Origin: Dryococelus australis | Lineage: Eukaryota > Arthropoda > Insecta > Phasmatodea > Phasmatidae | Assembly (NCBI GenBank): GCA_029891345.1 | Contig: CM056993.1 | Coordinates: 272,336,900-272,400,899 of the forward strand | Direction of reading: 5' to 3' | Length of the DNA stretch: 64,000 nucleotides | Shown here: positions 26,474 through 64,000 of the stretch, piece after piece | Layout of the letters: every line of letters starts with the position of its first letter | How positions within the stretch are numbered: the stretch's first letter is position 1 | Made by a program: the position numbers and the translations under genes | The notes under the pieces: model-generated | The model's database searches: none | The model's input: only the letters and a program-made list of their open reading frames with translations | What the model was told of the DNA's origin: nothing

Positions 26474-27197
26474 AAACTCATCATTTGTACTATATGTATT
26501 TTATTTCCATTAAATTCTTGAACAGATATAAAGAGGGTCACATGGTCTCACTTCATCCACACCTCACTCGTCTAGTGTCCCAGAAGTGGGTTGCATGGTC
26601 TCGCTCCATTCACAAATAAAAAATAATATACCTTGTACCACCCTTACACCAACATTAACACCGATATAAACAATTACAACCCACTCCTCTATTCAGTCCA
26701 TGCCAGCAAGTCACAGAGGACATATCGATGTTGCTCCCTCAATATCACCCTTAACCCTTTCAACAACAATGAAAATTAAAGAAATTTCATATCAAAAATA
26801 TTTTTTATTAATGAATTATTTAAGTAATTCTATTAATTGCACTAATTTATTTGATTAATTTATCAACTATTAATCGACTAGTCGATTAGCAACTAATCTA
26901 ATATTCGATGTATCGATATTAAATTAATCTAACAATCTATTATCCACACCATCCACATGTCATTTTACAAGTGTCCCAGAAGTTGTTCGTCCCTACTACT
27001 GTTGTTCTTCCTTCATTGTATTGATTCCATAATATTTTGTAGCATATATCTTTCCAAATTTAATTTTGATTTTCTGGTGTATTAAAAAGTGTAGAAAATA
27101 TCCTTATTTAAGCTCTTCTAATCCAAATGTTATTTTGATATTTAGACTCGGTATGTTAAGTTACATAATTTTTTGCCTCGATATATTGTTTGGGGCT
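26474..27197. other. Foreign or rearranged segment between penton and polymerase remains
   Basis: Bounded by a direct repeat: 26,474-26,530 resembles 27,307-27,364 inside the polymerase remnant (both run 'AAACTCATCATTTGTACTA' to 'CTTGAACAGATATA'). The phrase 'GTGTCCCAGAAGT' occurs twice within it, near 26,575 and 26,968. It holds no coding motif. It probably replaced or displaced much of the polymerase gene. Confidence 0.45.
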
Positions 27198-28710: not shown

Positions 28711-28891
28711 CTTTTATTTTCTTCTTTAATTGAAAAGGTCAAATTTTTGTTAGTTTTATTTCTTAGTTGTACAAATATCTGATTAGAAAATGGGAATATT
28801 TTTTTTCCTTCAATTTCTTTCTATCTTTCATATATAATTCATTGATATTGGAATAAGAAAATGGCAGATTTGCAAAATTTCTTTTTCTTTG

Positions 28892-29113
28892 CTAATCAAT
28901 AATAGTTCTAATTAAAACATCTTTCCTTAAATTAGATATATTTGTTATGTTAAAGCTTTTAGCTTTAGTTCTTAATTCCTCAACTGTTAAATCATGTAGA
29001 TTTTCCTCTGCTTGACGACTTTTTGTAATAATGCTTGTAATAAGATCATCTTTACGTAATTTATATAATTTTTTTATGTTTAATTCTCTAGCTATAATGC
29101 TCAACTCGGTCAC
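28892..29113 (-). CDS. Small protein with two SAP-like motifs, 73 aa (Polinton fossil 2)
   Basis: An uninterrupted frame starting 'MTELSIIARELNIKKLYKLR'. The motif 'L..IA..L.I....LRKDDLI' appears twice (about residues 3-28 and 41-70, the second 'LTVEELRTKAKSFNITNISN'). Tandem SAP/Rho-N-like helix-extended-helix motifs suggest DNA binding. It lies just upstream of the polymerase remains on the same strand. It resembles, but does not duplicate, the SAP-like remnant at 24,249. The start is the first Met; a longer protein is possible. Confidence 0.5.
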   Translation of the reverse strand: MTELSIIARELNIKKLYKLRKDDLITSIITKSRQAEENLHDLTVEELRTKAKSFNITNISNLRKDVLIRTIID

Positions 29114-29389
29114 CCTCCTTTCGCGCAGATCTACTACTGAATAATTCGTAGTGATATTTGTTTATTTATAAGAAATAAAAATTTATAAACGTTTAAAAAA
29201 ATTAAAAAATGAAGAAATGTCAGAAATAGTGGAAATGCTGGAATGAAATGCATAGATTATTGATAATAATTTTTAAAAATATTTAACATCTTCTGTGATA
29301 ATATATCTCACTACAGCTTTTTTTTTTTGTATATTGTTAAATGTTTGTCTTTGACGTTTTTATTAATAAACAAATAATTTTATAGATTT

Positions 29390-29816
29390 ATTCCCATTAA
29401 AACTGTGCATGTTTTTGTTGGATAATAATCATTTTGAATTTCTTTAAGAGTGTCTATTGATGTATTGTGTGATATAGTTTTTTTTTTATCCTCCTTGAGA
29501 TATATAATACAAACATATCTTCCACATTCACATAATATTTTCTCATTAAAACATTATTTACATTTTGTTGTATGTTTGTCTACAGTCGCTTTATGAGGAT
29601 AAAATTAATCAATATATTTATTCTCATTACGTACTAAACATGCCTTTGTTGAATAATCATGGCGAATTTCAATGGTATTATGCGATTTACTATTTTTATG
29701 CTTTTTGAGATATAGTTTAGAAACATATTTTCCACATTCGCATAGTACGTTCTTTGTTTATTTTTTTTACTCATGTTGATTTTTTTATGTTGCTTGGATA
29801 TGGTATTATTTTCCAT
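29390..29816 (-). pseudogene. Two related zinc-finger-like small genes (Polinton fossil 2)
   Basis: Two minus-strand regions (about 29,760-29,640 and 29,560-29,400) carry the same wording: a 'CECG.YV..LYLK' phrase, then a His-rich 'SHNT' phrase, then 'STKAC' or 'PTKTC'. This is a Cys2-His2-like arrangement, duplicated in tandem. Small zinc-finger proteins of this kind recur near the polymerase end of Polintons. Their function is unknown. Confidence 0.45.
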
Positions 29817-29923
29817 TTAGAGCACAGTTGCCATTTTATTTATTAAGAAAATTTATTTATTAAGAGAATGAAAAAATATTTTTCTTCAATAATCTGTTTC
29901 TTTATAAATTACACAAAACAAAA

Positions 29924-30262
29924 CATGGAATCTCTTCTCAAGAGGTTGAACAATTCGTTTGAATTCACTAAACTATAAGATCTAGAAAAAAATTAATAGT
30001 TTACTGCCACAGATTTTGAAATTTATGAATCCAATTTTGTTAAATTTCATTAACAGAGCGCTATGTGAAAATATTAGATAAAAATCCTTTGAAACTACTA
30101 AATGAGGAGGTTTTTATGTCATATAGAGGCTTAAAAGAATTGAAAAATGGAAAGTCTGTGCATGATGTAGAGTTCTCTTTAAAAATATACAAATATCTAT
30201 TCATTTGGATCTTTCTAATATTTTTACTTTATTTCATCTTATTTTGCTTGATTGTGGGTTAA
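29924..30262 (+). pseudogene. Small OB-like protein remnant (Polinton fossil 2)
   Basis: Begins 'MESLLKRLNNSFEFTKL', matching 'MDQLLNVLNGAKQFKKL' at 57,183 in fossil 3. Its later part includes 'NEEVFMSYRGLKELKNGKS'. In both fossils it lies beside a terminal repeat. This short family is common in Polintons and has been thought to resemble single-strand DNA-binding proteins; I cannot confirm that fold here. It is broken. Confidence 0.5.
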
Positions 30263-30651
30263 ATTTGCTTGATTTAGATTGCTCGCTTGCAAAAGTGACG
30301 TTTTCTACAAAACATGAAAATTTGCTTGAAAATCGATAAATTGAATCGATTTTAGCTTAAATTAGCTTGATTTTGGTTCTAAATCTTGCGTTCTTGATTC
30401 TTTCCGGATTTTTTTGGAGGGGGGGGGGAGGAGAGCTGAAATTCAAACGTGAAATTCGAGGTAAAAACATGACATTTGGAGTAAAAACATGAAATTTGGG
30501 GGGTAAAAGCATGAACTTTGGGGGGTAAAAAGTTTGAACATTGATGGGGAAAAAAAATTGAAATTTGGGGTAAAAAGCTTGATATTTGGGGTAAAAAATC
30601 ATGCAATTTGGGCCTAAAAATGGCTTTCCCTCAATCTGCCCATATACTACT
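30240..30651 (-). repeat. Right terminal inverted repeat of Polinton fossil 2
   Basis: The inverse of 16,548-16,947. Ends '...CATATACTACT', so its inward reading starts AGTAGTATA, as do the termini at 43,236, 50,003 and 56,704. It contains the same small 'AAATTTGGGGTAAAAA' internal tandem repeat and a G run (about 30,418-30,428). Confidence 0.85.
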
Positions 30652-40977: not shown

Positions 40978-42282
40978 CTAGGGGGCCGCAAATGACGCCA
41001 TGGCTTCGAGAAGTAGCCAGGTTCTCTCATGTTTTTCTGTGATGTTGCGGAGTTTTAGTATGTAGGGGTGGAAATGAGCCATGAGCGAGGCGAAGTCGCA
41101 TGCTCTAAGGAATTCCATGAGTTCATGGAAATCCTGCATTACGCTTCGCACCTCTCCTGGCGAATTTCGCTGGCGAGGGCGGGACTGAGGTTGTGTATTT
41201 GGCATTGCAGGGGTGTCAAGAGTCGGAGCTGGTTTGTGAATAGACGCAGAGAGTGCCTGCGAATACGTTTTGCCAGGCTGTAATGTCCTGACTGTGAACC
41301 TGGACGGGGCAGGAGGTTGTTTTGCAGTTTTTGGCGCGATTTTCGTAGCAGCAACTGTAGTTCTTTTCTGCACCAAGTCCAGGAACTTGGGGCATGCTTT
41401 TGATAGGGCTGTGTGTTCGCCTGCGCAGTTACTGCATGTAGGCTTGGAGTTGTTTTTGTTTGTGTTGCAAGCACTCTCGGGGTGAGGGCCGGCGCAGTGT
41501 GGGCATTTTGTCGGCATGGAACAATGATTTTTTGTGTGTCCTAAAGCGAGACAGTTGCGGCATTGTGCCACGTCTGTCGGCCGTTTCTGGTATTGTCGGG
41601 GATGAAGTATTGTCATATTTATTCTCGTGACAGAGTGCAGAGGAGGGAGAGAAGTGTTCTGCGCCGCCGTGACACAGAAAAAACGTTGCGGCTCCAACGT
41701 GAATTTGGTGGGGTCTGTTTGGTCTGGGATACGTTTTTTAAATTGATAAATGTGCTGGATTGAGTATCCGGCATATTCCAGGTCTGTCTTGATGTCCGCA
41801 ATGTCGGTTGTGGGGTGGAGGTCAAAAACGACTTTCTGTGGGAGCTCGGAAGCTTGACAGAAAGTAAAGTAATGTATGTAGTTCGCTTCTAGCATTGTGC
41901 GAGCAGCTGTGAAAAAGTTAAAGTTTTTAGTCAGGATTTGCGTTCCGCGAGCTGTGGGGAGAAGGGAGAACCCGTCCCTACTAATAGCTCGCAGTTTCTG
42001 GACAAGTAAGTTGTATTTTGTGGCGTCAGGAACCACTAATCTGTACTGGTTTTGTTTTTTCTGTCGTGTTTGTGGTGCAGCCGTTTGTGTTTTGTGGGTG
42101 GAGATGCTTGAAGAGCCGGGATGGTTAACTGCTGAGGTTTTTTCTGTTACCTCCTTAAGCGGGGAAAACCTATTTTGTGTAGGAATGGTGTTTGAATGTG
42201 TCTCAGACGACACAGAATGGAGACGCTTGTTCTCCTGCGTGGTTGTTCTGTATCGGTGTTGATTCCGAGCAGTTTTAACTGT
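40978..42282 (-). CDS. Jockey-type LINE ORF1 (gag-like nucleic-acid-binding protein), uninterrupted
   Basis: A single open frame of over 400 codons. From the GTG at 42,213 it gives 411 aa; the frame stays open to a stop at 42,283-42,285 but has no ATG before the middle of the protein, so the true start is missing or lies on another exon. Residues about 55-210 form the PRE_C2HC-like region of jockey-clade ORF1. Three zinc knuckles follow: C218-C221-H226-C231 (CX2CX4HX4C), C237-C240-H244-C249 and C260-C263-H267-C274. A Pro/Gln/Thr-rich linker and a helical C-terminus with many aromatic residues end it. Such proteins coat the element's RNA. No endonuclease/reverse transcriptase follows. It may be a young truncated copy, a half-LINE or a co-opted gene. 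Confidence 0.85.
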   Translation of the reverse strand, partial: TVKTARNQHRYRTTTQENKRLHSVSSETHSNTIPTQNRFSPLKEVTEKTSAVNHPGSSSISTHKTQTAAPQTRQKKQNQYRLVVPDATKYNLLVQKLRAISRDGFSLLPTARGTQILTKNFNFFTAARTMLEANYIHYFTFCQASELPQKVVFDLHPTTDIADIKTDLEYAGYSIQHIYQFKKRIPDQTDPTKFTLEPQRFFCVTAAQNTSLPPLHSVTRINMTILHPRQYQKRPTDVAQCRNCLALGHTKNHCSMPTKCPHCAGPHPESACNTNKNNSKPTCSNCAGEHTALSKACPKFLDLVQKRTTVAATKIAPKTAKQPPAPSRFTVRTLQPGKTYSQALSASIHKPAPTLDTPAMPNTQPQSRPRQRNSPGEVRSVMQDFHELMEFLRACDFASLMAHFHPYILKLRNITEKHERTWLLLEAMASFAAP

Positions 42283-43229: not shown

Positions 43230-43235
43230 ATCTAG
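43230..43235. repeat. Left 6-bp target duplication of the giant palindrome
   Basis: ATCTAG, identical to 50,004-50,009. Confidence 0.85.
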
Positions 43236-43675
43236 AGTAGTATAAAAATGATGGTCCTGGCGTACCTGGATGCTGGCTGAGGACTAGAAGACTTCAGTTA
43301 GCATATTAAGGTCTATGCCCATAAAAAAATTTCAAAAATTTTCCTCTAATTTGCATATTACCTGGCGTCGAGAAGCGGACACCAGGAGCGAGGATTTTCC
43401 TTCCCCCCCCCCTTTTTTCGTCCAAAATGGGCGATTTCGCGTACAAAACGTCCTTTTCCCCCCTCGAAATTTCCCGATTTTCCCTACCGCCGTCGGAAGC
43501 CATCTTGGAAGCAAGTGCCTGCCGCCATTATTTGCCCTAATAAGCATAATCCAGCAGGTGACTCCTCAAGGTGGCAAATAACCCATTTTTGGGAGGGTCC
43601 CCATGAGGGTCCCCGCTGCCAACTTGGATCACGAGCACCACTGACCAACAATATGGCGTCCGCATGTCGACCATG
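43236..43675 (+). repeat. Outer segment of left palindrome arm
   Basis: About 440 bp, inverse of 49,575-50,003, with 'CTAATTTGCATATTACCTGG' and 'GGTGGCAAAT' shared. It holds a C run near 43,400. The open frames through it are not coding-like. Confidence 0.8.
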
Positions 43676-45430
43676 TAAGCATAGTTGGCTGTAATTCCCG
43701 AACCGTTAAAGGTATAGTTGCCAAATTCATAAAATAGACATCAACCACGACAAGGAAAAGAACTGTGGGGTCAAATATGACCTATGCTAACTGCCATATT
43801 GGTATCGACGACCTATGTCTACCCAGGACAATTTGCGACCAGCTGAGGATGTCGATCTTTTTGATGGCCAGCGCCTCGGCAGCGGCAACATCAGCGGGGC
43901 GTCAAGGAGTCGCGAACGATCATATCTCGTGTAACACTGCCTCCTCCTTAAGTCTGTGTGTGCATAACACTTATAAGCATAGTAGGCTATAATTTCCGAA
44001 CCATTTACGTTATAGTTGTCAAATTCATAACATAGCCATTCACACCGACTAGGGGAAGGGTCGCGGGGTCAAATATGCCACATGTAATCTTATAAGAAGT
44101 TGGCTGTAATTTCCGAACTGTTTAAGTTATAGTTGTCAAATTCATGCCATAGGCATCCACCACGACTAGGAGAAGGGTCGAGGGGTCAAGTATGACCTTC
44201 GTCGACCTATGAGCATATGTAGCTGTAATTTCCGAACCATTTAAGTTATAGTTGTCAAATTCAAACCATAGGCATCAACCCCGACTACAAGAAGGCTCGC
44301 AATGACAAGTATGACATATGCTAACTTATAAGCATAGTTGACTGTAATTAACAAACCATTGTAGGTAAACTAGCAAATCCATAAAATAGGCATCAATCCC
44401 GACTATGAGAATGGTCGCAGGTTCAAGTATGACCTATTTCTACATATAAGCATAATTTGCTGTAATTTCCGAACTGTTTACATTATTGTTGTCAAATTCA
44501 TAACAAGAGCATCGCCCCAAATGATGAGAAAAGACGAGTGGTCAAGTATGCCATATGCCTACTTGTTAGCATAGGTGGCTATAATTTACAAACACTATGA
44601 AATGTTGTCAAATTCATAACATTAGCATCGCCCCAGATGTGGAGAAGAGATGAGTTGTCAAGTATGGTCTATGTCGACCTATAGTATAGTTGGCTGTAAT
44701 TTCCTAACTATTTAAGTTATAGTCGCCAAGTTCATACATAACCATCACCCCGACGACAAGAAGTGACGATTTACCAAGTATGCCTTATGTCGACATATAA
44801 GCATAGTTGGCTGTAATTTCCGAACCATGTGAGATTCAACTGTCAATAAGTTATAGTCGCCAAATTCAGCACATGGACATCGTCCCTGACGACGAGAAGA
44901 GTCAAGTGGTCAAGTACATCCCATGTTGACGAATAAGCATAGTTGGCTGCAATCTCCAAAATGTGTCAGATACAACTACCAAATCCATAACATAAGAATC
45001 ACCCCAGATGATGGGAATACTCACAATGCCAAGTGTGTGTCCTATGATTACGTATAAGCATAGTTGGCCTGAACCATTCGTGATACAGAAGACAAATGCA
45101 TAACATGATCATCACACCAGATGACCCACAAGGCCCAGTATTTCCTATGTCTACCAATATGCATAGTTAGGTGTAATGTCAGAATCAGTTGTCAAATTCA
45201 TAACATAGACACCACCCTAGAAGATGAGAAAAGGACAAGTAAACCCTATGTCAGCATACAAACATAGTTGGCTATAAGTTCCAAACCATTTAAGTATAAT
45301 ACCCATGGCTATGTATAAGCATAGTTGGTCGTAATTACCAAACCATATAAGATACAACTACCAACACAGTCACCGAAAAGGATCGAGGGGTCTAGTAAGT
45401 CCTAAGCACAAATATAAGCACTACAGCTAG
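43676..45430 (+). repeat. ~118-bp tandem repeat array, left arm
   Basis: About fourteen units, each opening 'TATAAGCATAGTTGGCTGTA', then 'ATTTCCGAACC', 'GTCAAATTCATAACATAG', 'CATC.CCCCGAC' and 'GGTCAAGTATGACCTATG'. Unit starts fall near 43,970, 44,092, 44,210, 44,328, 44,445, 44,562, 44,680 and 44,797, giving a 117-118-bp period. Later units are more irregular. Confidence 0.85.
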
Positions 45431-46449
45431 CACCAATCAGTTCGGTGTTCGTACATTAAGTAATGACTTTAGTTCACTATTAAACACCAGCCTCTGAAAT
45501 ACACTTGTTGAAAAAAAAAATATGCTGTCCCTAACATTACTGAAATAATGCTCCTGGTCATATTTAAAGGAAACAATATTTCCACCAGCTCAAAAAAAAA
45601 AGCATTCTAAATGTAATTGTTAAACTGGTACAAACACACACACACATAGGATGTATTAAATCCGTTTTTATTTTATTTCCGACATTCACTCGTGTACCGA
45701 AGCTGGTTTAAAATAATAATTACAGACAGACATACACGAACATCAATACATGTACATACCTCCACACAGACAGAGAAAGTACCACACCACTAGTGGGGGA
45801 ACAACCTTACACTCGTGCGTAGTGTACCAAGACTTCGATATATTTAAGTAATGAGATTAAACTCGGTAATCGCAATCAATATGCAGCTGAGTCCCCACTC
45901 ATACAACAATGCATGTTAGAATGATAAGTTTATTACAGAATGATTTATCCCCTACCTTAACCTGTGTAGCATCGTCAATGTGACCTCGTTAGAAGTAGAG
46001 ACTGCAATGACTGGTCCCACACTCCCTGCATTTTAGATACCGTTCAAGTACTGCATCCCCACCACCTCCCCTGGTCAACATATACTATTTATACAACTAT
46101 AGTATACAACGGTATACTATTTAAAGGAAACAATGCATGCACCTTGTACAATATGCGTGGTATCGCAGGATCGATTCCCTTAGAGAGTGGTAATACAAGT
46201 TGCTCATAAAATCGACATTGGATGTTCGTTCATCAAGGGGGGAAGCAAGGGGGTGCACCCACTGCTGAAACACTGACATGAAGAGAGTAGCTATCATTGT
46301 CTACATCAGTATTCATAATTACAGCCAGACCCTGATCTGCATTCGTGCACCAAGCCCATCACACACATGCAATTAGAGATAGTCATATGCATTGTTCTGT
46401 GTGCTTCTGCATGTCGTCCGCTAGAGTGCACAAAAGGAAATACCTACCA
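45431..46449 (+). repeat. Inner segment of left palindrome arm
   Basis: Unique-looking sequence with A-rich runs near 45,510 and 45,590. The innermost ~340 bp (46,107-46,449) is almost identical to its inverse in the right arm. Confidence 0.8.
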
Positions 46450-46554
46450 ACCCACACATGCATTTTGCACAAGCAGATAAGACTATACATCATATCTCAT
46501 TCGACAAAAGCCATGTAATGCCATCACTTATACAAATTTTCAGGTTTGCCGAGC
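46450..46554. other. Palindrome spacer
   Basis: About 105 bp between the arms, with no inverse partner and no coding sense. Confidence 0.8.
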
Positions 46555-47690
46555 TGGTAGGTAGTTCCTTTTGTGCACTCTAGCGGACGACATTGAAAAG
46601 CACACAGAACAATGCATATGACTATCTCTAATTGCATGTGTGTGATGAGCTTGGTGCACGAATGCAGATCAGGGTCTGGCTGTAATTATGAATACTGATG
46701 TAGACAATGATAGCTACTCTCTTCATGCCAGTGTTTCAGCAGTGGGTGCACCCCCTTGCTTCCCCCCTTGATGAACGAACATCCAATGTCGATTTTATGA
46801 GCAACTTGTATTACCACTCTCTAAGGGAATCGATCCTGCGATACCACGCATATTGTACAAGGTGCATGCATTGTTTCCTTTAAATAGTATACCGGTATGT
46901 ATGTTGACCAGGGGAGGTGGTGGGGATGCAGTACTTGATCGGTATCTAAAATGCAGGGAGTGTGGGACCAGTTATTGCAGTCTCTACTTTCAACGAGGTC
47001 ACATAGACAATGGTGAGATGTGCTCGCAGCATATGGGTAATTCACTGCTATACGGGTAAGGTAGGTGATCAATTGTTTCGTAATAAGCTTATTGTTATAG
47101 TTTGTGTTGAATGTGTGGGTGCTCGGCTGCGTATTTATTGCTATGTACCAAGAGACGTTTCATTATGTATATTCATAGACATATCAGTATAAACACACAA
47201 GTGCAATGGTGGTCCCCCCACCAAACCCCCCTTTCCCCCCGCTTGTGGTGTGGTACTAACCAGCTGTCTGGAAGTATGTACATGCATTGAAGTGTTGGGT
47301 ATGCCTGTCTGTAATTATTATTACCTGCTTCGGTACACAACTTTCAGTAGGAGATAAAAATAAAAACTGTATTTAATACATCCTATGTGTGTGTACCGGT
47401 TTAACAGTTACATTTATAATGTTTTATTTTGAGCTGGTGGAAGTATTGTTCCTTCCCAATATGACTGGGATAGTTATTTCCGCAATGTTAGGCACAGCAT
47501 ATTTTTTTTTCATCAAGAGTATTTCAGAGGCTGGTGGTTAATCGTGAACTAAAGTCAGTATTATATGTAGGAACACCGAACTACTCGGTGCTAGCTGTGG
47601 TGCTTATATTTGTGCTTAGGGCATACTAGACTCTTCGATCCTTTTGGGTGGCTGTTGGTAGTTGTATCACTTATGGTTGGGTAATTATGA
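46555..47690 (-). repeat. Inner segment of right palindrome arm
   Basis: Inverse of 45,431-46,449. Shares 'GTGCACTCTAGCGGACGAC', 'CAGTGGGTGCACCCCCTTGC' and 'GTACTTGATCGGTATCTAAA' (one change). Differences from the left arm grow with distance from the centre. Confidence 0.8.
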
Positions 47691-49574
47691 CCAATTATGC
47701 TTATACATACCCATGGGTCATATACTTTAATGGTTTGGAACTTATCGCCAATTATGTTTTTATGCTGACATGAGGGTTACTTGACCCTTCTCATCTTCTG
47801 GGGTGGTGTCTATGTTTTGAATTTGACAACTGGTTTGGACATAATGCTAACAATGCATATTGTGGGTCATCTGTAGTGTTGCTCATATTATTAATTTTGC
47901 TAATGTATCGTGAATGGTTCAGACCACTACGCTTATACATAGCCATAGGACACGCACTTTACATTGCGAGTCTTCTCGTTGTCTGTGTTGATACCTATGT
48001 TTTGCATTTGGTAGTTGTATATCACACACTTCGGATATTGTAGCCAACTATGCTTATACATCAAAATGGGGTGTACTTGACCACTTGACTCTTTTCGTCG
48101 TCGGAAATTACAGCCGAATATGCTTATAGGTCGACATAGACCATACTTACCCACTTGTCTCTTCTCCACAACTGGGGCGATGCTAATGTTATGAATTTGA
48201 CGACTATATCTTAAATGGTTCGGGCATTATAGCCAACTATGCTTATAAGTAGGCATATGGCATACTTGACCACTCATGTCTTCTTATACATGGGACGATG
48301 CTCATGTTATGAATTTTACAACACTAGCTTAAATGGTTCCGAAATTACAGCAAGCTATGCTTGTATGTAGAAATAGGTTATACTTGACCCTGTGACCCTT
48401 CTCATAGTTGGGGTCGATGCATATGTTATGAATTTGCAAGTTTACCTCCTATGGTTCAGTAATTACAGCCAACTAAGCTTATAAGTTGGCATATGTCATA
48501 CTTGACATTGCGACCCTTCTTGTAGTCAGGGTTTACACCTGTGGTTTGAATTTGACAATAACAAATTTTAAACTGTGCAGAAATTACAGCCATCTATGCT
48601 TATAGGTCGATGGAGGTCATACTTGACCCTCGACCCTTCTCATAGTCAGGGTGATGAATATGTTATGAATTTAGTAGTTGTACATCCAACAGTTCAGTAA
48701 TTACAACCAACTATGCTTATAAGTTTGCATAGGTCATATTTGACCCCGCAACCCTTCCCCTGGTTGGGGTGGATGACTATGTTATGATTTTGACAACTAT
48801 AATTTAAACTGTTCTAAAATTACAGCCAACTATGCTTATAAATTGGCATAGGTCATATTTGACCCTGCGACCCTTCTCATAGTAGGGGTTGATGCATACA
48901 TTATTAATTTGGTAGTTGTACCTCCAACATTTTGCTAATTACAGCCAACTATGCTTATAAGTTGGCTTAAGTCATACTTGGCATTGCGACCTTTCTCGTA
49001 GTCAGAGTTTATGCCTATGGTTTGAATTTGACAACTATAACTTAAATGGTTCGGAAATTACAACCATATATACTTATAAGTCGACATAGGTAATATTTGA
49101 TGCCACAACCCTTCTCCTAGTCGCAGATGATGTCTACGTTATTAATTTGACTACTACAATTTTTATGGTTCGGAAATTATGGCCACCTATACTTATAAGT
49201 TGACATGTGCCATATTTGACCCTGCGACCCTTCTCCCAATCAGGGTGGATGCCTATGTTATGAATTTGACAACTATAACTTAAATGGTTCGGAAATGATA
49301 GCCAACAATGCTTATAAGTGTTATGCACACATGCAGAGAGACTTGAGGATGTAATGTTACACGAGATGCAATAGTTTGCAGTGCCTTGATGCCCCACCAC
49401 GGCTAGTGAGGTGCTGGCTGCCAAAATGGTCTGCATCGATACCAAGATGGCCATTGGCATAGCTCATATTTGACCCCGCAGCCGTTCTCCTTGTAGTGGT
49501 TGATGTATACATTATGAATTTGGCAACTATACCTTTAAAGATTCGGGAATTACAGCCAACTATGCTTACATGGT
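47691..49574 (-). repeat. ~118-bp tandem repeat array, right arm
   Basis: About fourteen or fifteen units in the inverse orientation, each with 'TTACAGCCAACTATGCTTAT', then 'GGTCATACTTGACC' and 'ATGTTATGAATTTGACAACT'. It corresponds unit by unit to the left array, with one exchange of sequence near 49,320-49,450 that matches the left arm at 43,860-43,975. Confidence 0.85.
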
Positions 49575-50003
49575 CGACATATAGCTGCCAAATTTTTGGT
49601 CAGTAGTGCTCGTGATCCAAGGTGGCCACGGAGACCCTCATGTAGACTCTCCGAAAAAATGAGTAATTTGCCACCTTGAGAAGGCACATGCTGGATTATG
49701 GTAATTAGGGCGAAAATGTCGGCCGGCACTGGCTGCCAAGATGGCCGCCGCTGGTGGGAGGGAAATTTTGAGCGAAAAGGGGAAAAGTGACGTTTTTGTA
49801 CGCGAATTCGACCATTTTGGATGGGAAAAAGGGCAAAACAGGGAAATTCTCGCTCCTGGAGTCCGCAGCCCGACGCCAGGTAATATGCAAATTAGAGGAA
49901 ATTTTTGAGATTTTTTATGGGCAGGGACCTTAATATGCTAATTACAGTCTTCCAGTCCTCAGCCAGCAGCCAGGTGCGCCAGAACAATCCTTTTTATACT
50001 ACT
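49575..50003 (-). repeat. Outer segment of right palindrome arm
   Basis: Inverse of 43,236-43,675, ending 'TTTTTATACTACT'. Confidence 0.8.
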
Positions 50004-50009
50004 ATCTAG
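50004..50009. repeat. Right 6-bp target duplication of the giant palindrome
   Basis: ATCTAG, identical to 43,230-43,235. Confidence 0.85.
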
Positions 50010-56703: not shown

Positions 56704-57140
56704 AGTAGTATAGAAATACCGGTTCGAGCACAGGCCCCAGTTATCAGAAAACCAACAGCAAATTGAATGCCCAAACCATCAGAAAAAATTACCGTTTGTT
56801 TTCCTGATCCAAAACACCAGCTGCCAGTTCGAGCATAACGCAAAAAAGTGACTGCAAAAGTTGAGTTAGAGTGCAACCGCAAAAAGTTGCGTTTGGGAGC
56901 ATCCCCCAGTTATCAGAAAACCAACGGCAAATTAAATGCGCGAGCCATCACAAAACACCAGCTGTCGGTTCGAGCACAGCTGCAAAAAAGTGACTGCAAA
57001 AGTTGCATTTGGGTCCATATGCAAAAAGTAACTGCAAAAAGTTGCGTTAGAGTGCAGTTGCAGAAAAGTGACAGCAAAAGTTGCGTTAGAGTGCAAGCGA
57101 AAAATGTGACTGCAAAAAGTTACAAAGAGCGGCTCAAGAA
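56704..57140 (+). repeat. Terminal region of Polinton fossil 3 with tandem repeats
   Basis: Two ~180-bp units each hold 'CCCAGTTATCAGAAAACCAA', 'CAAATT.AATGC' and 'AACACCAGCTG.C.GTTCGAG' (about 56,732 and 56,912). After them a ~33-bp unit, 'AAAAGTGACTGCAAAAGTTG' plus 'CGTTAGAGTGCA', repeats five or six times to about 57,120. Such arrays are common in Polinton terminal repeats. The inverse copy should lie beyond the right edge. Confidence 0.7.
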
Positions 57141-57182
57141 ATTTGAATACGAAAAAAAAATAAAATATTGTCCATAATAAAG

Positions 57183-57374
57183 ATGGACCAGTTGCTAAAT
57201 GTATTGAACGGAGCCAAACAATTTAAGAAACTTTCCGAACTTTCAATGGGAAAGACCTATTCTATAGACCATGCTGAAATATATGATACACGGTATGTAT
57301 ACAAAGTGGTAATTACTTCTGGAAATTTTAAAGTAACCTTGCAGACAGATATATTCAGATTTTCAGCGAAATAG
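57183..57374 (+). CDS. Small OB-like Polinton protein (fossil 3)
   Basis: A 63-codon frame from the ATG at 57,183 ('MDQLLNVLNGAKQFKKLSEL'); an upstream in-frame ATG at 57,168 adds five residues. Related to 29,924-30,262 of fossil 2, where it also lies beside the terminal repeat. The short beta-rich sequence ('RYVYKVVITSGNFKVTLQTD') fits a small barrel. A single-strand DNA-binding role is only a guess. The frame may not be the full original length. Confidence 0.5.
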   Translation: MDQLLNVLNGAKQFKKLSELSMGKTYSIDHAEIYDTRYVYKVVITSGNFKVTLQTDIFRFSAK

Positions 57375-57756
57375 TTTTAGACGGCGTTAATCATGGAGGT
57401 ATAAATTTTGCGTATGATGGAATGGAGGATTGGGGGTTAAACAAAGGCATTCTATTCGGTTTTTAAAGAGTAAATGATCGTCGCATTAGACATCAGTAGA
57501 TTTTTATTTGTGCTCATATCTCTATAAAGTTGTAATGGTTATCCAATCATTAAAACACAATTATCGCTCTTACTTCGGCAATGTGCTACAACATAGTCTA
57601 ATTAAAAATTTAGACACACATCTCCAAATTCGACACATTAAAGTAGCCGAAACATTGAGTTCTTTCATTACACTTTCTATAGAAATATTAGTCATCTTTA
57701 TCACACGAAACTTTAATATATAGAATATGACTACTTCCAACCGAAAAAATACCTAC

Positions 57757-58483
57757 CGCTTCATCTCTAATACCACTGTTCTTTCAGACAAATCAAAGTT
57801 AATTAACTTACCTTTTTCATCCCTAATTTCAACTATTATTTCATTAACTTGATTTGTTTGCAATGGGAAAAATAATAGATAAGCTGGTTCGCAATAGATT
57901 GTGTCGCCAAATACAAATGTTGTTCTTGGTAAAAAGTGGCAATTATGCTAGTTTCTCTATGGTTATGTTCATAATGTTTTAATATCATACCATTTACTAT
58001 ATTACAGTGAATATTTATTGTTTCCAATGGAGCAAATTTTGGAATTGTATCACCATAATGATCCACTTTTGCTTTTAGAGTTTTATTTTCTACGAAACCC
58101 AAAAGTTTTCCTATTGAACCCCATTTTCCAAACTGTAATTTAAGCGTACATTTTATTTTCACTCTGTTTGTTATTTTATCCAGCTCGAAAGATATATCAT
58201 TTTCTTTCCCACCCATTGAATCTACACTAACTGAAAAAATTGCTTTTATGGATATTTCAAGATCTTTTAAGCTATATTGACCAACTGGACTATCAATTGC
58301 TGATTCCATATCAATCTGACCCACAAAATATAACTTATTTCTCCCAAAGATAATGTTATGCATTAGATAAGTAGTTTAGAACTGAAGTAAAGCCAATGAG
58401 TGTCCCTCTATCTCTAAAGGGTAGCGTAGTCTCTTCTTCAACACTGATTTATTATCTGTTAGTTTGAATACTTTCCTCATTTA
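57757..58483 (-). pseudogene. Penton-like minor capsid protein remnant (Polinton fossil 3)
   Basis: The N-terminal end near 58,483 reads 'MRKVFKLTDNKSVLKKRLRY', as in fossil 2. The long stretch 58,363-57,836 contains 'VGQYSLKDLEISIKAIF', 'GKLLGFVENKTLKAKVD' and 'APLETINIHCNIVNGMIL'. Near 57,830 'FPLQTNQVNEIIVEIRDEKG' closes the jelly roll. It is divergent from the ATPase and separated from it by only some 30 bp, so they probably shared a two-way promoter. It is broken. Confidence 0.75.
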
Positions 58484-58510
58484 TTACATTATTAAAAAAT
58501 CTATAAATAA

Positions 58511-59203
58511 ATGAGCAAGAAACATGTAGACTGTGATATTAGAATAAGAATACCAGACAAGACTGTATCGGCAAAACGTCATGGAGAATTATTACCTAAT
58601 AATATTAGGTGTTTGATTGTGGGTCTTAGTAACTGTGGGAAAACTACACTTATGATAAATAATTTTATATATGCTCAGGGATGGTTGGACGTTGGTACTC
58701 TCTATGTATGTTCAAAAAGTCTGGACCAACCAAAATATATCAATTTAAAGAAAGATATAGATGTAGCATCAAAATTATTTAATGAACCAATAGCATACTT
58801 CTTTATCAAATGAAGAAATAGTTGATGTAAATGAATGTCATAAAGAGTCTCTGTAGTTGTTTTCGATGATATCATACTTGAAAAACAAAATATGGTAAGA
58901 GATTACTGTACTCGCAGTAGACATAAAGATATTGATTGTTTCTATTTAGCTCAGACATACTCAAAAGTACCTAAGCAGCTTATAAAAGACGATGCTAATT
59001 TTCTTTGCAAATTCAGACAAGACGATACAAATCTTAAACATATTCATAGTGATTTTGTTGGGGGTGATATGTCATTTGAGAAATTTAGGGAGACTTGTTC
59101 AAAATGTTGGAATAACGAATATGGTTTTGTTACAATAGATATGACACGTAAGTTAAAAAATGGCAAGTATAATAATAAAATTAAAGACTTTTTACATTCT
59201 TAG
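58511..59203 (+). pseudogene. Genome-packaging ATPase remnant (Polinton fossil 3)
   Basis: The first stretch (58,511-58,813) has the P-loop 'IVGLSNCGKTTLMINNFIYA', then 'LYVCSKSLDQPKYINL'. The second (58,892-59,203) has 'RSRHKDIDCFYLAQTYSK', 'FRQDDTNLKHIHSDFVGGDM' and 'FVTIDMTRKLKNGKYNNK'. The Walker B strand lies between them near 58,860. The FtsK/HerA-type packaging motor. Order and wording match fossil 2. It is broken. Confidence 0.85.
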
Positions 59204-59644
59204 ATTGTAAGTATTGTTTCTAATGGAAACACTTCCATTAAATACTAACATAATCTGATCTTTTTAAACGTATTCATATACCATAACTATCTCAATAAAC
59301 ACAATTGTACCTTTGGGTACATTGTGGGATTTTGGTATTTTAAAATATATCCTATCATCAGGGTGTACTTCAAAATTTTATGCAGGTAAATTTTTTTCCG
59401 TTCATGATAACAATTGATAACACTTTTATATTTTTCTGGTTATATTATTATTTCAACTATAGTTCAATCTCTCATAAAAAATATCGAATTGTATTTCCCA
59501 ACTAAACGAATAATGATAATTCTGTTTTTCTGTTAGTACTCTAAATTGATTGCGTCCATCGTTGCAATGGGATTTCCCACATGTCTTAGTCTTATTTGTT
59601 CAAGAGCTATATTATTATCTACTTACAAGTAAGTAAGATAGGCT
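59204..59644. other. Polinton interior, not assigned
   Basis: About 440 bp between ATPase and the next small gene. Weak coding signs on the minus strand, with no recognisable family. Confidence 0.3.
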
Positions 59645-59806
59645 TTAGCCAATGATTTTTTTATTTCTTTTCAGAGTGGTTATAAAGACATTGAACTGTG
59701 TGTTGGAACCAAAATCATTAGGACTGATCTTCTCAACATTGTTCATGCATTCTTTAATTTGATCTTCAATCCAAGAGCTCATTAATGCATTTCCGCATAT
59801 ATCCAT
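59645..59806 (-). CDS. Small open reading frame, 53 aa (Polinton fossil 3)
   Basis: An uninterrupted minus-strand frame, 'MDICGNALMSSWIEDQIKEC' to 'NVFITTLKRNKKIIG'. Not recognised. It lies between ATPase and protease on the same strand as the protease. Confidence 0.35.
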   Translation of the reverse strand: MDICGNALMSSWIEDQIKECMNNVEKISPNDFGSNTQFNVFITTLKRNKKIIG

Positions 59807-59879
59807 TGTTTATTAATAGTGAAATAATTTTTGAAAATTCAAATTTATGTGGAAAGAGATTTAGCACAATTACACACAA

Positions 59880-60060
59880 TTGACCACAAGTTACTTTATT
59901 GAAATTTTGAATTATATCATTGTTATAAAAATATTACTTCCGAGATATGCTATTAATTGTCCCGGTGGATTTCCGCCAAATGAATCAAAATAATATTTAT
60001 TGTTTGCTTTTTTAACCATTTGATCAATATCGAATTTACTGAGTGGAGTTATTTTTTTTA
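59880..60060 (-). pseudogene. Adenain-like cysteine protease remnant (Polinton fossil 3)
   Basis: The minus strand reads 'KYYFDSFGGNPPGQLIAYLG', the central strand of adenovirus-type proteases, matching 'YYFDSLGGNTP' of fossil 2. Flanking catalytic segments are hard to see. It is broken and short. Confidence 0.6.
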
Positions 60061-60137
60061 ACATTTTTGCCCCACTTACCTTTTTTCAATCCCTTGCCAT
60101 ATTCCTCCATACCTAAATTATGTCTGCGTTGTTCTTC

Positions 60138-60332
60138 CTATTCTTGGTTTTTCTTCTTGGCATTAATTACTGATGTAGCGATAGATGATGCACCGCCAGC
60201 TAACGCTCCTAGATCTCCCAATGCTGCGAAAATTAAGGGTAAAAATCCACCCTTGTGAACTGTCAAACCATTTCCAGTTTTCATTTCTTTGGACATTTTC
60301 TTAAGCTGTGGAACTGAAATTGTGATAGTCAT
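60138..60332 (-). pseudogene. pX-like core/minor capsid protein remnant (Polinton fossil 3)
   Basis: The 64-codon stretch starts 'MTITISVPQLKKMSKEMKTG' and has 'GLTVHKGGFLPLIFAALG' then 'GALAGGASSIATSVINAKKK'. The N-terminal amphipathic helix, hydrophobic Gly/Ala segment and basic tail are the features likened to adenovirus pX or membrane-lytic peptides. It lies between protease and PLA2-like genes, as in fossil 2. Confidence 0.65.
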
Positions 60333-60477
60333 CCCTGTGTCCTCCTTTAGTTTATTGTTTTTTACGATCCAGTTGGTCTTTCGTTAGGAAAGAATCAGTA
60401 TTCAAACCCTTCAACTCCTCGTTAGGAACTTGATATACAATGTTTTTTTACTTTCATTTATTATAAAAAAAATTATA

Positions 60478-60890
60478 TCATTTTATTTTAAATCCCCAGC
60501 CAAGCTTACGTTTAATATGCATTGCAGATCCAGTAACGCCAGCCCACAATCTCTCATTGAGACCAGCGGCTGAACTTAACAATCTTTTGAACGCTTTCTT
60601 TTCTAGTTCTTTGTCAGCTACATTTCTTTCAGCTAGATCTTTATGATGATGATAAGCTATATCATGTTCCATTGCAGCCGCATCTCATGAATTAATGGGT
60701 TTATCACCATGCTCAATTCTCTCATTTAGTCTGGTACTCGGACCTAAGTACTGATATCCGGGTGCGTGCAACTCAAAAGGTAGTAAATTTATTATGTCAT
60801 TGAGTAACCCTTTTCCGTGATGCTCTGCCTCCCAAAAATTATGTGGGATTGTGTTTAACATTCGTATCAGATATGGTATACCTTTTGGAT
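60478..60890 (-). pseudogene. Phospholipase-A2-like protein remnant (Polinton fossil 3)
   Basis: The stretch upstream of 60,672 (read on the minus strand) includes 'LPFELHAPGYQYLGPSTRLN' with the calcium loop. The stretch 60,672-60,478 starts 'MEHDIAYHHHKDLAERNVAD', with the His-Asp pair, and ends 'MHIKRKLGWGFKIK'. It is a parvovirus-type PLA2 fold, thought to act in membrane escape. It is broken. Confidence 0.75.
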
Positions 60891-60893
60891 TAT

Positions 60894-61502
60894 TTACAAC
60901 AAAGTCACAAACTTGCTGTTGAGCATATTCATTATTCCAACTTTTTCATTGTAATATTTATCATTTCCAGCATTCTCTTCGCCATAAATAACAAGAAGTC
61001 CATCAATGAGCATCCTAACATCATCCATCCATATGTATTCTTTGGGGTAGTCTGTATACTTCTTTATACCGTTCCCCTTTTTAGGTGAGGGCCATTTCTT
61101 TTTAATCGAATCGTAAATAGGTTTAACAATAATTTTCCATTTATTCCCTTTATTCGAATTTGGTGTTCCCAAGTTTGGATCATTGTTTTGATAAACTGTG
61201 TTCGTATCTGTTACGATATGACTATAGTGTTCATAATCGATTGTTGTGTAGTCGCTTTCTGTTACTTTCTTACTAGTTAGTAATTTCATCAAACTATCGG
61301 TTGCAGTGTATGTTAGGCCATTTACAGTAAATTTGTCATTGATGAATGTTACTTCGTCATCACCAATATACAATTTACCTTTATCAGCCTTTAGCCCAAA
61401 AACATCGTCTTTGCAGTCAATTAAGAAATTGGCCAATTTCTTATCAATAAATGTTGTTTTGTAGTTAGTTAACTGTCGGATATCAGTTTTCAAATGCCCC
61501 AA
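60894..61502 (-). pseudogene. DUF8207-like Polinton protein remnant (fossil 3)
   Basis: A 202-codon stretch with 'GKLYIGDDEVTFINDKFTVN', 'YTATDSLMKLLTSKK', 'YPKEYIWMDDVRMLIDGLLV' and 'YGEENAGNDKYYNEKVGIMN'. The last two are typical of the C-terminal part of this family. It matches 19,240-19,870 in fossil 2. Role unknown; it sits just upstream of the PLA2-like gene on the same strand. Confidence 0.65.
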
Positions 61503-61505
61503 TGC

Positions 61506-61860
61506 TTAGTCATAGCATTCATCATCATCATCAATGTAATTAACGCCATCGTTATAGCATTCATCGCCATAATGTTCATTGGTGCCAGTTTTACCAAACA
61601 GTTTTCTTTCAAAAGATGTTTCTGTTGGTGTCTGTGGGTAGTCTAAATTCTTAACAACAATTGGAACAAGTTCTTTTATTAAATTCTTATTCTCATTTGT
61701 TACGTGTCCAATTTTTTGCTCCAAATCTTCTATCGCATCTATCAATGGTTGATCGTGTTTTTTATTTTTATCATATTCATCTTGGCAAATTTTCTAAAAG
61801 TTTTAAACTTTTCAATTAACTGTCTATTCTCTCTATATTCTTCTCCATATTGTTTACAAT
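61506..61860 (-). pseudogene. N-terminal region of the DUF8207-like protein (Polinton fossil 3)
   Basis: The 79-codon stretch 61,745-61,506 ('MIDAIEDLEQKIGHVTNENK', then 'VVKNLDYPQTPTETSFE') is a coiled coil followed by an acidic Asp/Tyr-rich end. The sequence to its right (to about 61,860) continues Lys/Glu-rich on the same strand. Fossil 2 has equivalent wording near 19,100-19,230. Confidence 0.5.
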
Positions 61861-61887
61861 TTTTTGTTGCCTCATTTATTATATAAA

Positions 61888-62061
61888 ATGAACAATGATA
61901 ACATAAATGTATACTGTCTCAAATGTATGAAAAATACACAAAGTTCATATAAACTTACCAATAATAACAAAGTAAGAATTAAATGTGTTTATAGGTGTAT
62001 GCTTTCCAATAGCGCTAAAACACCACTATTCACTGGTGGAAGTAAAAAAACGATATTGTAA
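61888..62061 (+). CDS. Zinc-ribbon small protein, 57 aa (Polinton fossil 3)
   Basis: An uninterrupted frame from 61,888, 'MNNDNINVYCLKCMKNTQSS'. It has a Cys-x-x-Cys pair and a second, spaced Cys pair ('IKCVYRC'), then a Gly/Ser/Lys-rich end ('FTGGSKKTIL'). Fossil 2 has a related piece at 22,103-22,210. It precedes the integrase on the same strand. It may be a separate protein or the integrase's zinc-binding N-terminus. Confidence 0.5.
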   Translation: MNNDNINVYCLKCMKNTQSSYKLTNNNKVRIKCVYRCMLSNSAKTPLFTGGSKKTIL

Positions 62062-62074
62062 ATGAAATACATAA

Positions 62075-62960
62075 ACCATTGCGAAAAAACTTCCACAGAA
62101 GAAGTGTTTTATCTTTTGGTATCGATTATCTTTGGCAAGCTGATTTAGTTGAGATGAATTCTGGATCTTTAAAAGGTATAATACATGTTAACTGTGATAG
62201 GTGTTTTTTTCCAAATATACATGGGCAATACCAAACAAAGATAAAACTGGTGAAAATGTTACGTTAGCATTTAAAACTATTTTGAATGATCGCAAACCCA
62301 TGCATTTACAAACAGATGAAGGTAAAGAAATTTACAATAAATCATTTATGACATTAATATCCAACAACAACATAACACACTATTCAACATACAGTGGAAA
62401 GAAAGTTAATGTTGTAGAAAGATTTAATAGAACATTGAAGGGGAAAATGTGGAAGATTTTACTATGCAGGGAAACTATAAATGGGTGGTTATAGTACCTA
62501 AATTAATAAGTGAATACAATAACACTGTTCAGAGTACAATTGGAATGAAAACCGCCAATGTAATTGCAAAGAATGAAGGTTCTATTCTAATTAGCATGTA
62601 TGAAGGAGAAAGAAAAATGGTTAAACCAAAGTTTGCAATAGGAGATGAAATTCGTATAAGTAAAAGTAAAAATTTGTTTGAAAAAGGATATACACCAAAT
62701 TGGTCTACTGAAGTATTTAAGGTGTGTGAAGTATTACACACAAACCCCATGACATACAGAATAAAAGATTAAAAAAATAAACTTATTAAAGGTATTTTTA
62801 TAAGTCACAGCTGCTTAAGACCAAATATGATAAAGACTACTTAGTGGAAAAAGTTTTGCGAAGAAAAGGAAATAAGCTGCTAATTAAATGGCTAGGTTTT
62901 GATATTAGTCAGAATTCTTGGGTTGATAAGAAAAGTATAGTTGTTTAAGAAAAATTTTTT
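62075..62960 (+). pseudogene. Polinton integrase remnant with chromodomain-like end (fossil 3)
   Basis: 'DYLWQADLVEMN' carries the first catalytic Asp. 'PMHLQTDEGKEIYNKSF' carries the second, and 'VVERFNRTLKGKMWKI' the Glu. From 62,595 'MVKPKFAIGDEIRISKSK' and 'FEKGYTPNWSTEVFKVCEVL' form the barrel domain. Near 62,840-62,945 'VEKVLRRKGNKLLIKWLGFD' with 'SWV' is chromodomain-like and may have guided target choice. All three catalytic residues are visible, but the gene is broken. Confidence 0.8.
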
Positions 62961-62973
62961 TTCTATATAATAG

Positions 62974-64000
62974 ATGGATCAACAAAAAATGAAAGTTATG
63001 AGCGTCAGTCGTTTACGCCAAACAACCAAACAACCAACAAAAAATTATTTGAATGAATACAACAAGCGCATTGATTTTCATATTCCTATTGGCGATGCAT
63101 TTTCACATCCGAATGAAGCTTATGTATACCAACAGTATAAGCTAACTAAAAGAGATACAAATGCAGCTTATGAAAAAACTTCAACTATTGACCTTTGTGA
63201 GAATTTTTTCCCATTCCAGTTCTCAAGAATAGAGATCACTAAACATGGTTGCATAATCGAAAGTATTGACAACCCTGGCATCACTTAAACATTGATGCAT
63301 ACATTGCAAGGTTCAGAATCAGAATCAGCATACTTCCAAATGTCGGGGATAGAATTAGGCAAATATGTTAGGAGAGATAATCCTAACGAAATTACCTATC
63401 CATTAAGATATTTGTTTGGTTTTATTAGAGATTGTAATGAAATATTCTGGAAAGGAGGGTACAAGATTAGATTAATTCGAAATTCTAGTGGCGATGTTTC
63501 GCTTTACAGAAGACCTCCAAAGAGAGCAGAAGGATCTGATGATGCAGATAATATACCAGCATCTGGTAAAATTATTATTGAGAAATTGGAAATTCTGTGG
63601 CCAATTGTTGAATACGATCCTATTTATGGAGATGAAATTAAAGAAAAATTATACAAACATCCCAAAATTCCAATTAGTTTTAATTATTGGCAATGCCTTG
63701 AAAAACCAGTACCTACTAATGCAAACTCATTTGAGTTTGATATAAAAGATCAGTTCAATTCAATTCAATTCGATATGCCAGACTTTGTCATTGTCGGTTT
63801 TCAGCAAAACAGAAAAGAAGATCCTGAACAATCCACACACGGTTCAATGTTTGACTCTTGTTCCGTAAAAAATATTTTTATTAAGAATGGACGAAATGAA
63901 GTGTTTCCCAAAGAGAATTGGAATTTAGACATTGATAATAAAATTTTCGATACAATGTATATTGGTTGCAATGATTTTAGAAATTCAAAGACTAAACTAG
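62974..64000 (+). pseudogene. Major capsid protein remnant (Polinton fossil 3), cut by the window edge
   Basis: Begins 'MDQQKMKVMSVSRLRQTTKQ', with 'IDFHIPIGDAFSHPNEAYVY' next and 'FFPFQFSRIEITKHG' near 63,215. Later wording includes 'MSGIELGKYV', 'PLRYLFGFIRDCNEI', 'KIRLIRNSSGD', 'YKHPKIPISFNYWQCL', 'PDFVIVGFQQNRKEDPEQST' and 'MFDSCSVKNIFIKNGRNEVF'. The last segments match the second jelly-roll half of Polinton hexon-like capsid proteins. The end lies beyond position 64,000. It is broken, with few breaks. Fossil 2 has the same gene at 17,380-18,870. Confidence 0.75.

What the first reader, a model, noticed from the sequence alone, without database searches (positions are those of the whole stretch)
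43236..50003. A 6.8-kb gene-less palindrome with Polinton-type ends
Seen: two inverted arms of 3.2-3.4 kb round a 105-bp spacer, starting AGTAGTATA at both ends and flanked by a perfect 6-bp duplication (ATCTAG). Known: AG starts and 6-bp target duplications are Polinton features, but Polintons normally carry 12-20 kb of genes between much shorter repeats. Inferred: this is a non-autonomous Polinton derivative made only of terminal repeats, moved by another element's integrase. I do not know of a described family of this form.
Basis: partly seen in the sequence, partly recalled or inferred. Interest (0 to 1): 0.85.

Follow-up and report, generated by a model that had tools for sequence, protein, structure and literature searches.

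The report
Palindromic offshoot of Polinton transposons
A 6.8-kb stretch with no long reading frame, whose two halves are inverted copies of each other, is an old inserted mobile element with Polinton-type ends, one of a large family of partly palindromic elements in this genome whose fold points differ among the copies examined.

Summary
Window 43236-50003 is an inverted repeat (arms 3,214 and 3,449 nt, about 85% alike, 105-bp spacer), with AGTAGTATA at both ends and perfect ATCTAG duplications. Three clear paralogous copies of the host repeat lack it. It belongs to a large family: over 13 elements with both ends located, flanks match at 60 of 78 bases for a 6-bp duplication (23-36% for other lengths), and 21 of 26 ends are exactly AGTAGT, the commonest published Maverick end motif. 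A gene-bearing Polinton in the same window (left end 56704) agrees with one member at 22 of 24 terminal bases and has a 6-bp duplication. So Polinton-type ends are well supported. A family 'made only of terminal repeats' is not: relatives have arms of up to about 10 kb with zinc-finger coding remnants and fold at different points, and this fold junction was seen only here (1 of 40 scored of 1,031 candidates). Its innermost ~480 bp are 97-98% alike, against 72-89% elsewhere, so arms were re-matched after insertion, though a similar patch lies away from the fold in another member. Best reading: snap-back-like Polinton derivatives mobilised in trans. The parent was not found, and deletion from a palindromic parent is not excluded.

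The parts
43230..43235 (.). left copy of the 6-bp target-site duplication ATCTAG
   Evidence: one similar target copy in paralogous empty sites
43236..46449 (+). left arm of the palindrome, starting AGTAGTATA
43969..44828 (+). 119-bp tandem repeat array in the left arm (7.3 copies)
45970..46449 (+). innermost left arm, 95-98% identical to its partner
   Evidence: (I1, I20)
46450..46554 (+). 105-bp spacer = continuation of the left arm in other family members
46539..46554 (+). first ~16 nt of a tRNA-like sequence that is longer in the arms of relatives; the arm folds here
   Evidence: alignment; RF00005 below gathering score in L019 and L022, none in L018
46555..50003 (-). right arm of the palindrome, ending TATACTACT
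46555..47012 (-). innermost right arm, 95-98% identical to its partner
48101..49319 (-). 119-bp tandem repeat array in the right arm (10.3 copies)
50004..50009 (.). right copy of the 6-bp target-site duplication ATCTAG
56704..64000 (+). part inside the window of a separate gene-bearing Polinton (P2; right end at C1:272408499, outside the window), possible type of helper: same AGTAGTATA end, AACATT duplication, DJR capsid protein, integrase core

Best explanation
The interval is a decayed non-autonomous element with Polinton/Maverick-type ends. Shown: a discrete 6,768-bp insertion with 6-bp duplication into a dispersed repeat, and ends shared with a large family and nearly with a gene-bearing Polinton. 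Inferred: family members were replicated and integrated by Polinton proteins acting in trans on the (AGT)2 ends; their palindromic shape arose when a growing strand switched templates and copied back on itself (snap-back, as in defective genomes of some DNA viruses), giving arm + loop + inverted arm with differing fold points. After insertion, arms were re-matched in patches by arm-to-arm conversion; in this copy the patch reaches the fold, so the present 105-bp-loop centre may have been re-made (trimmed) at that time, which would explain why no coding DNA is left.
For: TSD over 13 paired elements: 60 of 78 bases at length 6, 23-36% at lengths 3-5 and 7-10, 0 of 20,000 permutations as good. 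AGTAGT is exact in 27 of 34 ends, 21 of 26 paired; it is the commonest vertebrate Maverick end motif, linked in print to jumping-back in protein-primed replication (PMC8097293: passages, section 7). Empty sites. P2's left end shares 22 of 24 terminal bases with member L011, with AACATT on both sides; DJR capsid 5.6e-12, rve 5.2e-5 (below the curated cut-off) and Endonuclease VII 5.8e-7. Fold points on the reference arm (left/right): window 3575/about 3470, C1 3366/4748, C11 5515/5733, C17 6883/8453, C15 9033/about 8850; rough ones for C9a, C9b, E7 and C6 differ too. In E3 and E6, arm identity does not rise towards the fold, and both arms of E3, E11 and E12 are well-supported sisters in outer and inner regions, so these palindromes seem to have existed at integration. 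The window's inner arms are 97-98% alike, while the same region is 76-86% alike between elements.
Against: No autonomous parent with these arms was found, and no integrase or full polymerase was recognised in a member; the zinc-finger-gene domain resembles a Polinton polymerase N-terminal region only weakly (hhalign probability 86%, 4.8e-6, 14% identity). E14 has 0 of 6 duplication bases in register (TA repeat), E6 3 of 6. Fold points are often asymmetric by 1-2 kb or more (C1, C17, C9a, E7), as plain deletion would also give. E11 has a 94-99% patch at about R2.9-3.9k, far from its fold at R9k, so the window's patch need not mean that its fold was re-made. By raw identity, E1L, E6L, E6Ro, E2R, E2L and E3R (one region each) are as close or closer to another element's arm than to their own partner, and E2's arms are not sisters. 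E12's inner 2.5 kb are 99.8% alike against 83-87% outside, so some palindromes form or are converted in place.
Confidence: 0.57

Rival explanations
1. The parent is itself a long palindrome (arms of at least 10.4 kb); shorter palindromes, the window's included, are ordinary central deletions of it, without snap-back replication.
For: Long-armed palindromes exist: C15:62444477-62464962 and C6:89.18M, whose arms still pair at about R10.4k. A deletion between arms and a snap-back leave the same kind of junction. Several fold points are 1-2 kb or more asymmetric. Opposite-strand pairs are found again near R10k (3 among 40 scored).
Against: Three fold points (window, C11, C15) lie within about 105-220 bp of symmetry, more than random breakpoint pairs would give by a rough reckoning of mine (no call computed it). 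Opposite-strand pairs are fewer further in: 8 elements at R3.1-3.6k, 3 at R4.2-4.8k, 1 possible at R7.5-8.1k, each among 40 scored.
Confidence: 0.32
2. The palindrome is wholly a product of events in the chromosome: a long-TIR element inserted and its arms were later extended or re-copied by break repair and arm-to-arm conversion.
For: Window inner arms 97-98% against 72-89% elsewhere; E12 99.8% against 83-87%; E4 patchy, 80-100%, and E11 with a 94-99% patch.
Against: In E3 and E6 identity does not rise towards the fold, and arms of E3 and E11 are sisters also in the inner region.
Confidence: 0.22
3. It is a Foldback/Galileo-like or other cut-and-paste element, not Polinton-type.
For: Long internally repetitive TIRs, with first copies made only of TIRs, are typical of Galileo and resemble Foldback (PMC3573991, passages).
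Against: Duplication is 6 bp; ends are (AGT)2 as in Mavericks and close to those of a gene-bearing Polinton in this window. Ginger1 and Ginger2 make 4-bp duplications, Ginger1 with TGTNR ends (PMC2836005, passages).
Confidence: 0.07
4. Assembly artefact (foldback chimera).
For: Palindromes are a known artefact of some libraries (recalled); E12's 99.8% inner arms could be one.
Against: Window arms differ by about 15% with many indels, each arm matches other family members, and the flanks show a target duplication and empty paralogous sites.
Confidence: 0.02

Closest known systems
Polinton/Maverick elements
   Same: 6-bp target duplications, (AGT)2//(ACT)2 ends, inverted terminal repeats; nearly the same 24-bp end as Polinton P2 in this window
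   Different: no long ORF; arms of 3.2-3.4 kb against TIRs of 46-1,447 bp (mean 402) in intact vertebrate Mavericks (PMC8097293, section 7); palindromic
Snapback (subgenomic) genomes of adeno-associated virus (PMC8235507, passages)
   Same: arm + loop + inverted arm, symmetric or asymmetric, made from one end of the genome
   Different: those are molecules of a parvovirus population; here they would be integrated fossils of a protein-primed element, inferred only from structure
Galileo (P superfamily) and Foldback of Drosophila (PMC3573991, passages)
   Same: long, internally repetitive inverted repeats of variable length, recruitment of internal sequence into TIRs, copies made only of TIRs
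   Different: other transposase family; other duplication length and ends (recalled)

Membership tests
Polinton/Maverick | 6-bp target-site duplication | tested here: met
   6 of 6 for the window; 60 of 78 bases over 13 elements; empty sites
Polinton/Maverick | (AGT)2 or (AG)3 end motif at both termini | tested here: met
   both window ends; 27 of 34 family ends (ends were placed by best match to the motif near the predicted site); motif from PMC8097293
Polinton/Maverick | terminal inverted repeats | tested here: met
Polinton/Maverick | protein-primed polymerase, integrase, packaging ATPase and capsid genes between the repeats | tested here: not met
   no ORF of 150 aa or more in the interval; relatives show zinc-finger remnants with a weakly polymerase-like domain. 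So it is not filed as a Polinton proper but as a non-autonomous derivative
Polinton/Maverick | mobilisation by a Polinton integrase | not testable with these tools
   inferred from ends and duplication length
Snapback defective genome | one end duplicated in inverted orientation with its own fold point; loop colinear with one arm | tested here: met
   the same junction could come from a central deletion
Snapback defective genome | free replicating molecules | not testable with these tools
   genome assembly only
Foldback/Galileo | duplication longer than 6 bp (recalled) | tested here: not met
   match only at length 6
Foldback/Galileo | P-type transposase in autonomous copies | not tested
   no transposase was searched for by family; the Pfam scans of selected ORFs did not show one

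The most novel reading that the evidence does not exclude
This genome keeps a large fossil series of snapback (defective-interfering-like) genomes of Polintons: linear, protein-primed replicating molecules folded back at varying points, so that both ends carried (AGT)2 and were integrated with 6-bp duplications. That would be genomic evidence that Polintons replicate as free linear DNA, as proposed, and that they support parasitic palindromic satellites.
Probability: 0.32. Interest if true: 0.85.

Novelty: new variant of a known kind. Interest (0 to 1): 0.6.

Why it matters
Polintons are called self-synthesizing because of their genes, and the replication cycle itself has hardly been observed (recalled). 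Palindromic derivatives with differing fold points, intact (AGT)2 ends and 6-bp duplications are what such a cycle could leave behind, and would make it testable from genome sequence. Six phrases for non-autonomous Polintons or Mavericks found no paper in the held library; the titles listed for Polinton with palindrome (20 of 44), with defective/Maverick/long TIR terms (20 of 22) and with non-autonomous/TIR (25 of 40) show none on such elements.

Tried and rejected
1. The C5 element (77513125-77534566, duplication CCCATA 6/6) seemed to be the autonomous parent because polymerase-like and ATPase-like ORFs (by eye) lie in it (L026, L036). Rejected: 39 of 40 scored matches to the junction (2,268 candidates) stop at the family boundary, so the AT-rich DNA belongs to a separate repeat.

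2. Polymerase label: L038:2567-3619 looks by eye (recalled motif) like a protein-primed polymerase, but Pfam, PHROGs and PDB sequences gave nothing. P2 is called a Polinton from its capsid, integrase-core and Endonuclease VII hits and its ends and duplication.

3. Relatives of the zinc-finger-gene domain in IMG/VR: 45 pattern stretches, none confirmed. P2 protein in phage records: no match.

4. tRNA: ARAGORN found none in 14 sources, Rfam none at gathering score in 4 loci; below gathering, 2 of 3 stretches gave RF00005 (not L018). A permissive scan of the window interval gave one chance-level miRNA match in the flank.

5. Fold-junction microhomology cannot separate snap-back from deletion; not used.

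6. An adenovirus precedent (symmetric recombinants, recalled): the search listing (10 of 2,416) gave nothing usable; left out.

They weaken the steps 'centre re-made after insertion' and 'arms homogenised at birth', so I lowered the best explanation from 0.62 to 0.57 and the novel case from 0.35 to 0.32.
Full report
THE OBSERVATION. The window lies at C1:272336900-272400899 of a 3.4-Gb genome in 646 contigs. The interval 43236-50003 is an inverted repeat with arms 43236-46449 and 46555-50003 and 105 bp between. Both ends read AGTAGTATA and ATCTAG flanks it on both sides. Each arm has an array of 119-bp repeats, 7.3 and 10.3 copies. No ORF of at least 150 aa lies inside (shorter ones not examined). 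Arm identity is 72-89% in most 250-bp bins and 97-98% in the innermost ~480 bp.

A REAL INSERTION. The two flanks joined with one ATCTAG align without interruption across the junction to other copies of the surrounding dispersed repeat: L022 (222 aligned columns, 79%), L025 (267, 75%) and L028 (204, 74%). A fourth, L035, runs only 18 bases past the junction and resumes about 250 bases further on, so it is weak support. These are paralogous empty sites with one target similar to ATCTAG.

A FAMILY. The outer 500 bp has 44 matches, from 40 scored of 1,061 candidates in this genome. In an alignment of 18 ends the similarity starts at AGTAGTATA and the flanks are unrelated. For 13 elements I have both ends. 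Ends were placed by the best match to the end motif near the predicted site, without regard to the flanks, with one exception: C13a has two candidate right ends and I took the one (L025:4322) whose flank matches; without this element the sum is 54 of 72. Flank matches for a 6-bp duplication are 6, 5, 5, 4, 3, 4, 4, 6, 5, 6, 6, 6, 0 of 6 (window, C1, C11, C7, C17, C3a, C7b, C13a, C13b, C15, C5, C10, C3b). The zero sits in a TA repeat. The sum is 60 of 78; lengths 3-5 and 7-10 give 23-36%; 156 mismatched pairs average 1.78 of 6; 0 of 20,000 permutations reach the observed sum. Six further loci had one end only and are not in this count. AGTAGT is exact in 27 of 34 ends and 21 of 26 paired ones.

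POLINTON TYPE. In vertebrate Mavericks (AGT)2//(ACT)2 is the most common end motif, with 6-bp duplications; the repeated motif is thought to allow jumping-back in protein-primed replication, and TIRs of intact elements are 46-1,447 bp (PMC8097293: passages, section 7). In the window itself a second element (P2) starts at 56704 with AACATT|AGTAGTATAGAAATACCGGTTC and ends outside the window (L038:7600) before AACATT. It is 14.9 kb long and encodes a double-jelly-roll capsid protein (PF21738, 5.6e-12), an integrase core (PF00665, 5.2e-5, below the curated cut-off), Endonuclease VII (5.8e-7) and a Bro-N domain (4.5e-11). Its left end agrees with that of family member L011 at 22 of 24 bases (counted). 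A third, decayed element at about 16.5-30.65 kb ends AGTAGTATATGGG at 30651.

ANATOMY OF THE FAMILY. Using the left arm of L019 as a ruler (R), elements run from R1 inward, then fold and run outward. Left/right fold positions: window 3575/about 3470 (105 nt apart on its own arm); C1 3366/4748; C11 5515/5733; C17 6883/8453; C15 9033/about 8850. Rougher ones, reckoned on the assumption of no further indels: C9a at most 4935 / at least 6970, C9b about 7230 / at least 7716 (positions), E7 about 10.0k/5005, C6:89.18M with arms pairing to about R10.4k round a ~200-bp loop; C2:150.29M and C17:183.14M fold near R10.2-10.4k and cannot be told from C6 at this resolution. C3:281.281-281.283M has opposite-strand matches 0.55 kb apart and may be another short palindrome folding not far from the window's point; it was not fetched. 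Some members are not palindromic: C3b has a left arm to about R10.4k but a right arm of R1-1010, and C13b has one arm with gaps and 54 bp of the other end. Inner arms (beyond about R4.7k) hold coding remnants of a C2H2 zinc-finger gene (Pfam zinc-finger hits are below cut-off). A domain of it has 150 scored of 8,280 candidate matches in the genome and resembles weakly the N-terminal part of a Polinton polymerase gene as I read it (hhalign 4.8e-6, probability 86%, 14% identity). The arms also pass through a tRNA-like sequence (RF00005, 23.8 and 25.1 bits, gathering score 29; class II and anticodon UAA, hence tRNA-Leu, are my reading; no match in L018). The window's arm folds about 16 nt into it.

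THE WINDOW'S FOLD. A 201-bp query over the junction has 40 scored of 1,031 candidates. Only the window matches through; each other match lies on one side (query 1-110 or 97-201), and where both sides are present they run straight on along an arm (alignment). The inner-arm region is 76-86% alike between elements but 97% within the window element, so it was re-matched after insertion and is not simply slow to change. Whether the fold itself was re-made then is open. Patches of high identity occur elsewhere: E11 has 94-99% at about R2.9-3.9k, far from its fold at R9k; E4 has patches of 98-100%; E12 has an inner palindrome of 2,495 bp at 99.8% inside outer arms of 83-87%, the last either very recent or an assembly problem. 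In E3 and E6 identity does not rise towards the fold. In trees, the two arms of an element are sisters for E3, E11, E12 (support 0.98 or more), E1 (0.87) and E6 (0.83) in R2400-3170, and for E3, E11 and E12 in R3440-4600; E2's arms are not sisters. The tree is star-like, and by raw identity several arms (E1L, E2L, E2R, E6L, E6Ro; E3R in the inner region) are as close or closer to another element than to their partner. So the palindromes of E3 and E11 at least seem to be as old as their insertion, and the rest are uncertain.

MECHANISM. Shown: discrete insertions, 6-bp duplications, conserved (AGT)2 ends, differing folds, later re-matching of arm patches. Inferred: Polinton replication and integration in trans; snap-back of the growing strand as the source of the palindromes; break repair or conversion as the source of the window's present centre. 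The snap-back reading has a precedent in form in AAV, where symmetric and asymmetric snapback genomes are a major category of defective particles (PMC8235507, passages). The main rival, deletions inside a palindromic parent, is not excluded: junctions look the same either way, long-armed palindromes exist, and several folds are 1-2 kb or more asymmetric. Opposite-strand pairs are fewer inward (8 elements at R3.1-3.6k, 3 at R4.2-4.8k, 1 possible at R7.5-8.1k, each among 40 scored) but 3 reappear near R10k, which fits neither reading cleanly.

VERDICT. A new variant of a known kind: non-autonomous, palindromic elements with Polinton ends. No paper on non-autonomous Polintons or Mavericks was found with the phrases tried (seen as partial search listings only).

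Noticed in passing
window 56704-64000 (continues to L038:7600): A 14.9-kb gene-bearing Polinton (P2) with AACATT duplications, inverted ends with 39/78-bp tandem repeats, and capsid, integrase-core, Endonuclease VII and Bro-N hits.
   Followed up: partly
window about 16540-30651: A decayed AT-rich Polinton-like element (P1) with 21-bp repeats in its inverted ends and an AGTAGTATATGGG right end.
   Followed up: no
L026:1-6282 and L036:8000-10000 (C5:77523.7-77532.0k): An AT-rich repeat (2,268 candidates for its end) with polymerase-like and ATPase-like ORFs (by eye) ends exactly where the palindrome family's arm resumes; its end is not AGTAGTATA.
   Followed up: partly
L019:4742-4828, L022:6236-6322 (-): A tRNA-like sequence with long variable arm lies in the arms of the family; the window's palindrome folds inside it and E12's inner palindrome ends near it.
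   Followed up: partly
L036/L037 (C5:77515581-77522527): Inner palindrome with 2,495-bp arms at 99.8% identity inside an element whose outer arms are 83-87% alike: very recent rearrangement or assembly error.
   Followed up: no
C3:281281534-281282798: Opposite-strand matches to the arm centre 0.55 kb apart: possibly another short palindrome of this family.
   Followed up: no
L033:3377-3900 and L029:1-500 (E11): Arm patch of 94-99% identity at about R2.9-3.9k, away from the fold: about the same stretch that is re-matched in the window element.
   Followed up: no
L025:792-1185: Two family ends face away from a 392-bp stretch whose edges are themselves inverted (GTTGTGTTAT ... ATAACACAAC); cause unknown.
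   Followed up: no
window 13208-13776: Minisatellite of 38/114-bp units.
   Followed up: no
window 40978-42213 (-): 411-aa ORF with zinc-knuckle-like cysteines (by eye, gag-like, recalled); no Pfam hit at 0.001.
   Followed up: no
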